From Microbacterium sp. (GTDB taxonomy: Bacteria > Actinomycetota > Actinomycetes > Actinomycetales > Microbacteriaceae): a stretch of 64,000 nt of DNA. Below are positions 59,995 to 63,960 of this stretch, in pieces. The translations under genes and the position numbers were made by a program. Under the pieces are notes generated by a model that was not told the origin of the DNA, ran no database searches, and saw nothing but the letters and a program-made list of their open reading frames with translations. Position 1 is the stretch's first letter. Every line of letters starts with the position of its first letter. The DNA is taken from contig JAEKKN010000027.1 of the NCBI GenBank assembly GCA_019510305.1, positions 50,200 through 114,199 on the forward strand, given 5' to 3'.

Positions 59995-60067
59995 GGCCCC
60001 ATCGTTTAGCGGCCTAGGACGCCGCCCTTTCACGGCGGTAGCACGGGTTCGAATCCCGTTGGGGTCA
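59995..60067 (+). tRNA. tRNA-Glu(TTC)
   Basis: A 73-base tRNA. Acceptor GGCCCCA pairs with TGGGGTC (one G-T wobble) with discriminator A. The anticodon loop is CTTTCAC and the T-loop TTCGAAT. First of three tandem tRNA genes. No CCA encoded. Confidence 0.95.
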
Positions 60068-60096
60068 CTCCATCCGATACAATTGAAAACAAGTAT

Positions 60097-60170
60097 GGCC
60101 CTGTAGCGCAGTTGGTTAGCGTGCCGCCCTGTCACGGCGGAGGTCGCGGGTTCAAGTCCCGTCAGGGTCG
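60097..60170 (+). tRNA. tRNA-Asp(GTC)
   Basis: A 74-base tRNA. Acceptor GGCCCTG pairs with CAGGGTC (one G-T wobble), discriminator G. The anticodon loop is CTGTCAC, T-loop TTCAAGT. It lies 29 bases after tRNA-Glu, probably the same transcript. Confidence 0.95.
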
Positions 60171-60238
60171 CTCTGAGCGATGGGTCCTTTTTTCGGAGAG
60201 GGCCTTTCGTCTAGATGCGGCAGGTTCGCCGGTCGCAC

Positions 60239-60311
60239 GGCTCTGTAGCTCAGTTGGTAGAGCGCACGACTGAAAATCGTGAGGTCACGGGATCGACGCC
60301 CGTCGGAGCCA
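60239..60311 (+). tRNA. tRNA-Phe(GAA)
   Basis: A 73-base tRNA. Acceptor GGCTCTG pairs with CGGAGCC (one T-G pair), discriminator A. The anticodon loop is CTGAAAA. The T-loop reads ATCGACG, with A rather than T at position 54, an uncommon variant. It is the last tRNA of the cluster and is followed by a terminator. Confidence 0.93.
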
Positions 60312-60338
60312 CACGGACCGTCGTTACAACGGTCCCAG

Positions 60339-60600: not shown

Positions 60601-63600
60601 GTGACCACTCTGTACGTCGGGAACGACCCGAGCCGGATGCCGATCGCAACAGCTCTGGCACAGGCTCTCCCGGGCGACGTGCTCTCGCTCGCCCCTGGCA
60701 CGTATGCGATCGGCTCAGTCACGCTGAACGGCGTGACGATCACTGGTGAGGGCGGAGCCGAGGCGACGACGGTGATCGGCACGATCGCGCCCCATGGGAA
60801 CTGCAGCGTCGCCTCACTGACGCTCACCGCGCAACCCCGGGGCAGCGCGGTCGCCATGGTGCACGGTGCTGACGCGTATCTCAGCATCACCGACTGCCGC
60901 ATCGCGGGCGACTCCACCGCGAGCACGCTCACCGTGGGAGTCGACCGCGGCACGCTGGTTCTCAACAGAGTCGTCATCGCGGACGATGCCGATCCCACCA
61001 CCGTCAAGATCGCAGCCGGCGCGCGCCTTCATGCCACCGCCTCACGACTCGGTGGACTCGAGGTGAACGGAGGCTCGGCTGACCTCATCGGCTGCGCCGC
61101 TCATCTGGTGCTGGCGCGAGACGGGGCGCAGGTCCGCGGATACTCCCCTCTCGACCTCACACCGGTACCGGGAAAGCGGGCGCTGCGATCACTCAGCGGA
61201 GCGACTCTCGACCTGGAGTGCGTCCGCCTCAACGGAGATCAGGCGTTCGAGGCGCAGGCCAACGCGGCTGTGCTGCGCATCGCGCAGCTCGAATCTCCGA
61301 CGGGCGCACCGCTCCGAGTGGTCGCCGAGGCGGAGGCCGAAATCCACTGCGAGAGCCCGCTCGCCGAGATCGTGCGGGCGACGCCGGTGCCCCGGAAGCC
61401 ACCGAGGGCGAGAGCCGGGTCCGGCCCTCAGCGCGTGCTCTGGCCCGCGCATCAGGGCCGCAGTTTCGCGACCGACGTGCAGTCGCGGCTCAAGCCCGGC
61501 GACACGCTAGTGCTCGAAGAGGGCGAGTACTCGTTCGATGATCTGGCGAACGGCGACTTTTCGTGCGAGGTGAATCTCGACGGTGAGGGCCGACGTGACC
61601 GCATCGTGCTGCGCGGCCGCCTGACCCTTCCGCCCGGATCCCACGTGACCCTCACCAACCTCACGATCGAGCATCCGATCACGACCAACGCCGTGTACGT
61701 GTCGGCCGGCGCCGATCTCTCGATGCACGGCGTCACGATACGCAGCGACGCCGCGGCCGAGCTCCCCGCGCTGTACGCGCAGGGAGCCGTCACCGCGACC
61801 GCCTGCGAGCTGCGCGCCGGTGCAGCGGAGACGAGGGCCACCGTCACGCTCGCGGGCGGTGGCCGTCTCTCGGCCCTCATGTGCGAGCTCGGGTGGGCGG
61901 ACTTCGCCGGCTCCTGCGTCGTCTCCCTCGAGTCGTGCTCGCTGTTCCGGCTCGCGACTCGAGAGCAGGCGCGCGTGACATCCGCGGGCCGGCTCACGGT
62001 GCATCCGAACGCACGCAATCAGTGCTCCGTGACCGCCAAGGGGCAGGCGTCCATCGACATCGATGTGCTCGACTGCCCGCCGGGTGACGAACTGAACATC
62101 CAAGATCAGTCGTCGCTCGCCATCGCCTCCTTCGCCTCCGGACGGATGCCGACGATCACGCGCGGCGGGGCCGCGCAGATGTCGCAGGGTGCCGCAGGCG
62201 GGTATCGCGAGGGCTCCCGTGGCGGCATGGTCACGTCTTCGCTTCCGGGACGAACCGCCGTCGCGGAGGAGCAGCACTCCGACGGGTCCGACGTCACGGG
62301 CATGCGCGAGGACTCGCTGACAGCGCTGAACCACCTGGTCGGGCTCCGCACGGTGAAGGAGCAGGCTGCTCAGTTCGTGAAGAACGCGGTCATCAACCGC
62401 GAACGGTCGCAGCTCGGGCTGAAGTCCATGCAGCTGACGCTGCACAGTCTGTTCCTCGGCAATCCGGGCACCGGCAAGACCACCGTGGCACGGCTCCTCG
62501 GCAAGGCCCTTTTCGCAGAGGGCGTGGTCTCCTCCGATGTGTTCGTCGAGGTCGGACGCGCCGATCTCGTCGGCACGCACATCGGAGATTCGGCGCCGAT
62601 GACCGAGAAGGTGCTCGACAGCGCCCGCGGCGGCATCCTCTTCATCGACGAGGCCTACGCCCTCGCACAGGGAGTCGACGAGGACTACGGCCAGGAGGTG
62701 ATCGACACGATCATCGCCTATATGGAGAACCATCGGGACGACCTCATGATCATCTTCGCCGGATACACCGACAAGATGCAGCGGCTACTCGAGATGAACG
62801 CCGGCCTGCAGTCGCGGACCCCCAATCGTTTCGATTTCGAGGACTACACAGGCGAGGAGCTCGCCACCATCGGCGTGAACGCCCTCCGCGACACGGACTA
62901 CGAACTCGAGGACGAAGAGTTGTACCGCCGCATCCTCAGTCGCGGCTACACCCAGAGCGCCGACCGCAGCAACGCTCGCTGGGTGCGCAATTTCAATCAG
63001 GAGCTCATCAGCCGACAGGCCGATAGGGTGCACGAACTCCGCACCCGGAGCATCGCCGACTACCGACTGATCGCCGACGATGACCTCTACGCGGTCGCTG
63101 GTGTGGAGATGGATGCCGAGGGCGGCTCGGCCGCGGTAGCCGCTCTGCTCGCCGAGCTCGACGGCATGGTCGGTCTCGCCGAGGTCAAGGCTTGGGTCGC
63201 GAAGCTCGTCAACCGTGTGAAAGCCGATCAGCGCCGCATCCAGGCCGACGCCACCATCTCGCGCCCCACTTATCACGTCACCTTCACCGGCAGCCCCGGC
63301 ACGGGCAAGACCACGGTCGCCCGCATCGTCGCCCAGCTCTTCCACGAGCTCGGCGTGCTGTCCAAGCCGACCGTCAAAGAGGTGAATCGCGCGGCTCTCG
63401 TCGGCCCTTATGTCGGCCAGAGCGAGCAGCGCACATCGCTCGCGATCGACGAGGCGATGGGCGGCGTGATGTTCATCGACGAGGCATACGATCTCTTCCG
63501 CGATGGCGGCGACTCCGCCGACTACGGCCAGGCCGTGATCGCGACGCTGCTTCCGCGCCTCGAGAACGACCGCGACAAGTTCGTCGCGATCCTGGCCGGG

Positions 63601-63960
63601 TACGCGGCCGAGATGGACGTCTTCTTCTCCGCGAACCCCGGGCTCCGCTCCCGTGTGCCGCACACCGTGCGCTTCGCCGACTACTCCCCCGAGGAGGTCG
63701 CCGAGATCGTGGTGCGGATCATCACGAGCACCTGGACGGTCGACACGGCTCGGCTCACCGCACTGATCGCCGGGGTCTATCGCGCTCTTCCCGAGAAAGA
63801 ACGGGCGAACGGGCGGAGCGCGCGCATCCTCGCAGAAGAGCTCGAGGGCCTGCAGGCGGATCACATCGCGATGGACGACGTGCCGGATGCCGAGCTCCAC
63901 GTCATCCCGGCAACCGTGCTCGAGGCGTTCGCCCGCGCGCACGGCGTCGCTCAGGTCTGA
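60601..63960 (+). CDS. Fused double beta-helix/double AAA+ (CbxX/EccA-type) ATPase
   Basis: A 1119-aa protein. Residues about 1-270 and 280-545 are two pectate-lyase-like right-handed beta-helix modules, each beginning with the same kind of segment (IATALAQALPGDVLSLAPGT and FATDVQSRLKPGDTLVLEEG). A Gly/Ser-rich linker leads to two AAA+ modules of the CbxX/CfqX type, with Walker A GNPGTGKTT at 620 and GSPGTGKTT at 897 and Walker B ILFIDEAYAL and VMFIDEAYDL. No signal peptide or membrane helix, so cytosolic. The GTG at 60601 is the best start. CbxX-type AAA proteins include EccA of type VII secretion and rubisco activases; a secretion or envelope-assembly role is inference. Downstream partners lie outside the window. 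Confidence 0.87.
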   Translation: MTTLYVGNDPSRMPIATALAQALPGDVLSLAPGTYAIGSVTLNGVTITGEGGAEATTVIGTIAPHGNCSVASLTLTAQPRGSAVAMVHGADAYLSITDCRIAGDSTASTLTVGVDRGTLVLNRVVIADDADPTTVKIAAGARLHATASRLGGLEVNGGSADLIGCAAHLVLARDGAQVRGYSPLDLTPVPGKRALRSLSGATLDLECVRLNGDQAFEAQANAAVLRIAQLESPTGAPLRVVAEAEAEIHCESPLAEIVRATPVPRKPPRARAGSGPQRVLWPAHQGRSFATDVQSRLKPGDTLVLEEGEYSFDDLANGDFSCEVNLDGEGRRDRIVLRGRLTLPPGSHVTLTNLTIEHPITTNAVYVSAGADLSMHGVTIRSDAAAELPALYAQGAVTATACELRAGAAETRATVTLAGGGRLSALMCELGWADFAGSCVVSLESCSLFRLATREQARVTSAGRLTVHPNARNQCSVTAKGQASIDIDVLDCPPGDELNIQDQSSLAIASFASGRMPTITRGGAAQMSQGAAGGYREGSRGGMVTSSLPGRTAVAEEQHSDGSDVTGMREDSLTALNHLVGLRTVKEQAAQFVKNAVINRERSQLGLKSMQLTLHSLFLGNPGTGKTTVARLLGKALFAEGVVSSDVFVEVGRADLVGTHIGDSAPMTEKVLDSARGGILFIDEAYALAQGVDEDYGQEVIDTIIAYMENHRDDLMIIFAGYTDKMQRLLEMNAGLQSRTPNRFDFEDYTGEELATIGVNALRDTDYELEDEELYRRILSRGYTQSADRSNARWVRNFNQELISRQADRVHELRTRSIADYRLIADDDLYAVAGVEMDAEGGSAAVAALLAELDGMVGLAEVKAWVAKLVNRVKADQRRIQADATISRPTYHVTFTGSPGTGKTTVARIVAQLFHELGVLSKPTVKEVNRAALVGPYVGQSEQRTSLAIDEAMGGVMFIDEAYDLFRDGGDSADYGQAVIATLLPRLENDRDKFVAILAGYAAEMDVFFSANPGLRSRVPHTVRFADYSPEEVAEIVVRIITSTWTVDTARLTALIAGVYRALPEKERANGRSARILAEELEGLQADHIAMDDVPDAELHVIPATVLEAFARAHGVAQV

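What the first reader, a model, noticed from the sequence alone, without database searches (positions are those of the whole stretch)
60601..63960. Duplicated beta-helix scaffold fused to a duplicated EccA/CbxX AAA+ engine
The sequence shows two polysaccharide-lyase-like beta-helix halves with parallel start segments, then two AAA+ modules, all in one cytosolic 1119-residue chain. CbxX-type AAA proteins (EccA, CbbX) usually have TPR or small helical N-termini, not beta-helices. A long solenoid coupled to a remodelling ATPase suggests a machine that grips a repetitive or elongated client. It may be a variant type VII secretion/WXG100 component, or a new chaperone system. It sits directly behind a tRNA cluster and its partners would lie just beyond the window.
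Basis: partly seen in the sequence, partly recalled or inferred. Interest (0 to 1): 0.75.

Follow-up and report, generated by a model that had tools for sequence, protein, structure and literature searches.

The report
Beta-helix fused to double AAA+ chaperone
This gene encodes a probable ATP-driven protein-remodelling machine with a two-part beta-helix arm; the arm-plus-motor design is already known from relatives of a secretion system, but this gene belongs to a separate, little-studied branch that does not travel with that system.

Summary
Confirmed: one 1119-residue ORF (60601-63960, +) with two beta-helix halves and two CbxX-type AAA+ modules whose ATPase motifs are intact. AlphaFold2 models residues 1-532 at pLDDT 86; each half matches solved right-handed beta-helices. 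In five aligned N-termini no His or Lys is invariant, so the helix looks like a scaffold rather than an enzyme. [quoted passage not shown] The type VII idea fits a sister family (10 of 12 tandem loci read from other actinobacteria lie beside EccC and mycosin) better than this clade: none of 4 window-clade loci has Ecc or mycosin genes nearby, and 3 of 5 clade genomes show no EccB. The AAA modules are nearest to Lactobacillales proteins, some of which lie beside small membrane proteins with N-terminal YVxPP or FGxxA motifs. No such partner was found for the window clade, and the gene looks like solo cargo behind a tRNA cluster. Best reading: a dedicated, T7SS-independent AAA+ remodelling chaperone whose doubled beta-helix recruits a client; the client is unknown.

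The parts
60601..63960 (+). Beta-helix/tandem CbxX-type AAA+ protein, 1119 aa, GTG start
   Evidence: full-length relatives L021 85%, L022 74%, L023 about 50% identity
60604..61389 (+). Beta-helix half 1 (model residues 1-262), helix near its start
61390..61422 (+). Linker between halves, modelled at low confidence
   Evidence: pLDDT under 50 at model residues 260-273
61423..62199 (+). Beta-helix half 2, helix and GDTLVLEEGEY segment near its start
62299..63123 (+). AAA+ module 1 (Walker A at residue 620; sensor-2 SNARWVR)
63130..63957 (+). AAA+ module 2 (Walker A at residue 897; sensor-2 ANGRSAR)
59995..60068 (+). tRNA-Glu(ttc), first of the tRNA cluster upstream
60097..60171 (+). tRNA-Asp(gtc)
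60239..60312 (+). tRNA-Phe(gaa), edge of a site whose downstream genes vary in the genus

Best explanation
A cytosolic, ATP-driven remodelling chaperone of the SpoVK-CbbX-EccA clade. By analogy with CbbX and double-ring AAA+ proteins it should form a hexamer with two stacked AAA rings (inferred). The doubled, apparently non-catalytic beta-helix stands in front of the rings and recruits the client; ATP hydrolysis then pulls on or remodels the client, perhaps a short flexible tail of a membrane protein (inferred from Lactobacillales relatives, some of which lie beside small membrane proteins with N-terminal YVxPP or FGxxA motifs). The gene belongs to a branch that does not travel with type VII secretion and was probably gained as a single cargo gene in a variable site behind a tRNA cluster. 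Shown: architecture, intact ATPase motifs, duplication, branch placement (with long-branch warnings), lack of nearby Ecc/mycosin genes, solo context in the syntenic relative. Inferred: hexamer, client recruitment, kind of client.
For: Intact motifs in both AAA modules. Beta-helix fold of both halves, no invariant His or Lys in 5 aligned N-termini. AAA tree: window clade (5 proteins) with Granulicatella L024 and Ligilactobacillus L040 rows, 97/89, apart from the branch with the T7SS-linked proteins, 96/91. AAA pairs of L230 and L231 are 48% identical to the window's, against 38-42% for the Streptomyces-type hits listed. No EccB, EccC, EccD or mycosin near 4 of 4 window-clade loci; no EccB in 3 of 5 clade genomes. 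In 21 loci of Lactobacillales-type relatives, all 5 genes with Y[VIL]xPP in the first 60 residues, out of 282 neighbour genes, are direct neighbours of the AAA gene (hypergeometric p 4.6e-5). L021 reads tRNAs - this gene - transporter, whereas G014 has the same tRNAs and transporter (87%) and no match to this protein. Narrow-target chaperones with variable recruiting N-termini: PMC10659427, passages.
Against: No client or partner is identified for the window clade: profile A4 of the Lactobacillales partner gives one match at E 0.83 in 5 genomes. The motif partner is seen at 8 of 21 loci counting YVLPG (L244) and the FG type (L230, L231); the motif was noticed by eye before it was tested, and small membrane proteins as such are only mildly enriched next to the AAA gene (10 of 41 adjacent, p 0.043). 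Eleven loci read later show no YVxPP. L084_A1, another Lactobacillales row, falls outside the group in the tree. The window genome and L021's have a T7SSa, so action in trans is not excluded. Hexamer and threading are untested; the AAA part of the full-length model is poor (pLDDT blocks of about 30-59).
Confidence: 0.5

Rival explanations
1. An EccA equivalent that serves the genome's own type VII secretion system in trans.
For: Own genome has EccC, EccB and EccD over the cut-off, mycosin slightly under, and a WXG100 pair on contig C13; I saw no CbxX gene among the genes read there, and one search lists this protein as the genome's only relative at E<=0.001. Tandem beta-helix/AAA proteins of other actinobacteria sit beside T7SS genes at 10 of 12 loci. 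The EccA profile matches both modules.
Against: EccB occurs in 43 of 149 genus genomes (39 over the cut-off) while tandem AAA relatives occur in 3 of 149, so this T7SS does not need the gene. No EccB in 3 of 5 window-clade genomes. No Ecc or mycosin gene at 4 of 4 window-clade loci. Different AAA branch. EccC-like proteins below the cut-off do exist in the three genomes without EccB.
Confidence: 0.2
2. A mobile-element or defence-type accessory gene (for example anti-phage) that uses the beta-helix as a sensor.
For: Patchy distribution (2 of 398 family genomes match the N-terminal half), variable site behind tRNAs, a Firmicutes-like relative next to a phage integrase (PF00589) at the edge of a provirus contig (L131), plasmid copies of relatives.
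Against: PADLOC matches are weak and lie in the AAA part (best IetA 47.8 bits for the window protein, 74.8 for L231). No shared neighbours at the four window-clade loci. L131's gene begins at the contig end, so it may be host DNA.
Confidence: 0.12
3. A carbohydrate-active enzyme (PL6/AlgE-like) coupled to ATPases.
For: Nearest folds are PL6 alginate lyases and AlgE epimerases.
Against: Fold matches only, mostly 8-14% identity; no invariant His or Lys in 5 rows; fused to ATPases. That it lacks a secretion signal is my reading of the N-terminus, not a call.
Confidence: 0.04

Closest known systems
Beta-helix EccA-like proteins of Streptomyces T7SS loci (annotated 'right-handed parallel beta-helix repeat-containing protein')
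   Same: Same domain order: beta-helix then two CbxX AAA modules, about 1100 residues
   Different: Beta-helix recognised by Pfam PF13229 (L039); separate AAA branch; beside EccC and mycosin, which the window clade is not
   Same: AAA pair 48% (L230, L231) or 41% (L040) identical; N-termini of L230 and L231 match both window halves (42-63 bits); L040 AAA in the same tree group
   Different: Shorter N-terminus that would fit one beta-helix unit (330 and 319 residues); L040's N-terminus is hardly matched by sequence; L230 and L231 have motif-tailed membrane neighbours
SpoVK (B. subtilis)
   Same: Same higher-order AAA clade; TIGR02881 is the best NCBIfam model
   Different: Short N-terminal domain (residues 2-41) and restricted to sporulating Firmicutes (PMC10659427, passages); single window modules score 239 and 209 bits, cut-off 423
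EccA (mycobacterial ESX)
   Same: CbxX AAA; PDB 9lur is a sequence match to module 2
   Different: TPRs in front (PMC10659427, passages), encoded with ESX; window protein is below the TIGR03922 cut-off
CbbX (red-type Rubisco activase)
   Same: Best solved-structure sequence match (3syk, E 1e-48)
   Different: About 300 residues, no beta-helix, Rubisco client

Membership tests
SpoVK-CbbX-EccA AAA+ clade | CbxX-type AAA core | tested here: met
   TIGR02881, TIGR03922 and TIGR02880 match each module alone, E 8e-55 or better
SpoVK-CbbX-EccA AAA+ clade | GY in sensor-1 | tested here: met
   FAGY and LAGY; criterion from PMC10659427
[quoted passage not shown]
   NAGLQSR and NPGLRSR carry an Asn, but I count six positions to the Arg where the paper says four
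SpoVK-CbbX-EccA AAA+ clade | Second arginine finger (sensor-2) | tested here: met
   SNARWVR and ANGRSAR; assignment by pattern, not by structure
EccA (type VII secretion) | Score above the equivalog cut-off TIGR03922 | tested here: not met
   401.5 bits with both modules summed against 466.65; single modules 203 and 209
EccA (type VII secretion) | Encoded with T7SS genes | tested here: not met
   No EccB/C/D or mycosin at L021, L022, L023, L053; own T7SS is on another contig. L053 has a WXG100 gene beside groEL. The window's downstream side is not in the assembly
EccA (type VII secretion) | Acts on T7SS substrates | not testable with these tools
   needs genetics or biochemistry
SpoVK | Score above the equivalog cut-off TIGR02881 | tested here: not met
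   439.6 passes 422.95 only because two modules add up; alone 239 and 209
CbbX | Score above the equivalog cut-off TIGR02880 | tested here: not met
   383 against 459.25
PL6 alginate lyase | Two parallel beta-helices in one chain (for PL6, recalled) | tested here: met
   Both halves are beta-helices; Foldseek E 3.2e-6 to 7o7t, TM 0.26/0.21
PL6 alginate lyase | Catalytic Lys and Arg (recalled, no call) | tested here: inconclusive
   No invariant Lys, invariant R193, R209, R422 in a 5-row sequence alignment; no superposition on a lyase active site was possible

The most novel reading that the evidence does not exclude
The window gene is a member of a T7SS-independent beta-helix/CbxX AAA+ chaperone system shared by Lactobacillales and Microbacteriaceae, in which the beta-helix reads short linear motifs (YVxPP, FGxxA) in the cytosolic tails of small membrane proteins and the AAA rings extract or remodel those proteins; the Microbacteriaceae branch doubled the beta-helix and turned to a client encoded elsewhere.
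Probability: 0.3. Interest if true: 0.7.

Novelty: new variant of a known kind. Interest (0 to 1): 0.5.

Why it matters
EccA's function is called unknown in a 2024 T7SS paper (PMC11217815, passages). A branch with the same beta-helix/AAA design that does not travel with the secretion system separates what the machine does from what the secretion system needs. The motif-tailed membrane proteins beside some Lactobacillales members are a concrete, testable candidate client for this AAA clade. For the window gene itself the client is still unknown, which limits its immediate value.

Tried and rejected
T7SS membership of the window gene: considered first, because annotated Streptomyces relatives sit in T7SS loci; set aside for this clade. 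Kept against me: the window genome and L021's have EccB (L021's 147 bits, under the cut-off of 154); EccC-like proteins below the cut-off exist in the genomes of L022, L023 and G468; L053 (G468) has a WXG100 gene beside groEL about 6.6 kb downstream (WXG100 was not among the queries). Two Microbacterium genomes with the other-branch gene (G073, G124) have the two highest EccB scores of 149 genus genomes (262 and 257 bits), and in G073 the AAA gene is about 18 kb from EccB on the same contig; that supports the T7SS link of the other branch.

SpoVK membership: the whole-protein score passes the cut-off only because two modules sum.

Motif partner in the window clade: profile A4 gave one match at E 0.83 in 5 genomes; in the ORFs called for the window and 20 held actinobacterial loci none had Y[VIL]xPP, and repeated FGxxA occurred only in AAA proteins themselves. 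In 246 genomes of the order of G942 (Lactobacillales) A4 gave 19 genomes at E<=0.001; 7 are strong (E<=1e-22): the six training genomes plus G1054, whose copy lacks YVxPP and has no AAA relative in the 10 kb read; the other 12 are weak and were not followed. One search covered 21 loci (282 neighbour genes, 40 adjacent), among them L238, L245 and L247, whose N-termini do not look like beta-helices to me, and L024, L040, L131. Repeated FGxxA in a neighbour is seen once (L230); L231 has one FGxxA and an FGTHV. Of the 31 genomes, loci were read for the 17 genomes and 10 new ones (its eleventh locus, L279, repeats L024); 8 of those 10 look alike, and none shows YVxPP.

Conserved neighbours of L021, L022, L023, L053: none. 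Defence. Phages and viruses: 11 phage records and 77 viral loci with AAA similarity; gene lists were read for 4 of the 77, of which only L131 looks like a beta-helix/tandem AAA protein. Direct repeats around the gene in L021: the search was empty; integrases were not searched by profile there.

T7SS tally: tandem proteins 10 of 12 (7 of 7 tandem Streptomyces plasmid loci; 3 of 5 unnamed-genome loci, misses L091 and L100); single-AAA beta-helix proteins 0 of 9 (L089, L094-L099, L101, L102); Microbacterium L051 and L052 none in the stretch held. The plasmid loci were taken from the top of the list (8 of 38 Streptomyces records; H5, H13, H19, H20 were shown but not read), not at random. L039, L041, L042 were judged by annotation, not.

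Tree: treekit warned of long branches; independent tandem duplication is not claimed. L230 and L231 are not in the tree; L029 dropped out because my Walker A pattern missed it; EccA is represented by L028 and L031 only; L084_A1 falls outside the Lactobacillales group. Hmmsearch E-values are for a 25-sequence file; I rely on bits. Genes in unannotated loci were called with a home-made GC or length rule and transmembrane counts are a simple hydropathy count; both are rough.

Full report

What the parts look like. Both AAA modules keep Walker A, Walker B, GY sensor-1, NxGLxSR and a sensor-2 Arg, so both are expected to hydrolyse ATP (inference). The segment that I take for pore loop 1 (recalled assignment) varies among close homologues: in module 1 THIG in the window, RYIG in L021, QYIG in L022, SVIG in L023. 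In five aligned N-termini (window, L021, L022, L023, L053) 69 positions are invariant, mostly Gly, Ala, Leu, Pro and Val, with no invariant His or Lys; a glycan-cleaving site is therefore unlikely, though the alignment is small.

Relatives. Full-length: Microbacterium hydrocarbonoxydans SA35 (85%), a Leucobacter MAG (74%), M. paludicola (about 50%) and G468 of the same family (N-terminus 29%). The gene is rare: 2 of 398 family genomes match the N-terminal half; 3 of 149 genus genomes have a tandem AAA relative, the window's own and two of another branch. Three groups of beta-helix/CbxX proteins were met in actinobacteria: (a) tandem proteins beside EccC and mycosin at 10 of 12 loci read; (b) single-AAA proteins, 0 of 9; (c) the window clade, 0 of 4. 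In the AAA tree the window clade sits with Granulicatella L024 and Ligilactobacillus L040 rows (97/89), apart from (a) and (b) (96/91), with long-branch warnings and with one Lactobacillales row (L084) outside. The AAA pairs of L230 and L231, not in the tree, are 48% identical to the window's.

Type VII question. The window genome has a T7SSa on contig C13 (EccC, EccB, EccD over the cut-off, mycosin slightly under, WXG100 pair). EccB is found in 43 of 149 genus genomes, in the window's genome and L021's, but not in those of L022 (a MAG), L023 or G468. EccC-like proteins below the cut-off exist in the latter, and G468 has a WXG100 gene beside groEL about 6.6 kb from the AAA gene, so a divergent system is not excluded. 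Granulicatella (G942), with two beta-helix/AAA loci, has no EccB match and only a 107-bit EccC match in an 801-residue frame. The gene is therefore not a fixed T7SS part.

Genomic context. The tRNA cluster of the window is matched in 14 loci from other genus genomes; the genes called after it differ. In L021 the order is tRNAs - this gene - membrane transport protein (PF03547); in G014, which has no match to this protein, it is tRNAs - about 1.5 kb - the same transporter at 87% identity; in four other genomes read further the transporter was not found in the stretch. This fits gain of a single gene at a variable site. No direct repeat was found at L021.

A partner in Lactobacillales. 31 of 246 genomes of the order of G942 have relatives at E<=1e-50. 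At some loci a small multi-span membrane protein lies directly beside the AAA gene and carries a short motif in its N-terminal tail: YVxPP in L233, L237, L239, L240 and L241 (three copies), YVLPG in L244, FGxxA three times in L230 and once in L231. Of 282 neighbour genes at 21 loci, 7 contain Y[VIL]xPP; 5 of these are adjacent, and all 5 with the motif in the first 60 residues are adjacent (p 7.7e-4 and 4.6e-5). The motif was chosen after looking, so these values are optimistic; small membrane proteins as such are only mildly enriched (p 0.043). The bodies of L240 and L241 are not detectably related to L233/L237/L239, i.e. the motif outlasts the body. One relative without a neighbouring AAA gene (G1054) lacks the motif. 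None has a Pfam match over the cut-off. Many loci lack such a partner, and none was found for the window clade.

Mechanism. [quoted passage not shown] I read the window protein as such a chaperone with a doubled beta-helix recruiter. Hexamer, threading and client are inferred.

Novelty. The fusion kind is known. The T7SS-independent branch with a doubled beta-helix and the motif-tailed membrane neighbours did not turn up in my searches; these cover open-access papers only, I saw listings and passages of two papers, and they are no proof of absence.

Noticed in passing
   Followed up: partly
L051, L052, L091: The other beta-helix/tandem AAA branch in two Microbacterium genomes and a further actinobacterium is accompanied by a sigma-70 factor; L051 and L052 also share a 934-residue protein without a Pfam match, and L052 has an Hsp70-type protein.
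   Followed up: partly
L089 (Streptomyces sp. NBC_00019 plasmid): A single-AAA beta-helix gene overlaps by 4 bases the end of a 19-kb gene for a giant hypothetical protein; a RICIN-domain gene follows.
   Followed up: no
L048 11293-11688 (own genome C82) and L053 18923-19213: A lone WXG100 gene (PF06013) beside a groEL-like gene (groEL by my reading) in the window's genome and in G468.
   Followed up: partly
L131 (IMG/VR 2663762720): Beta-helix/tandem AAA gene at the contig edge next to a phage integrase: cargo or flanking host gene.
   Followed up: partly
L024 8882-11653 (Granulicatella elegans): Beta-helix/AAA gene appears split between its two AAA modules.
   Followed up: no
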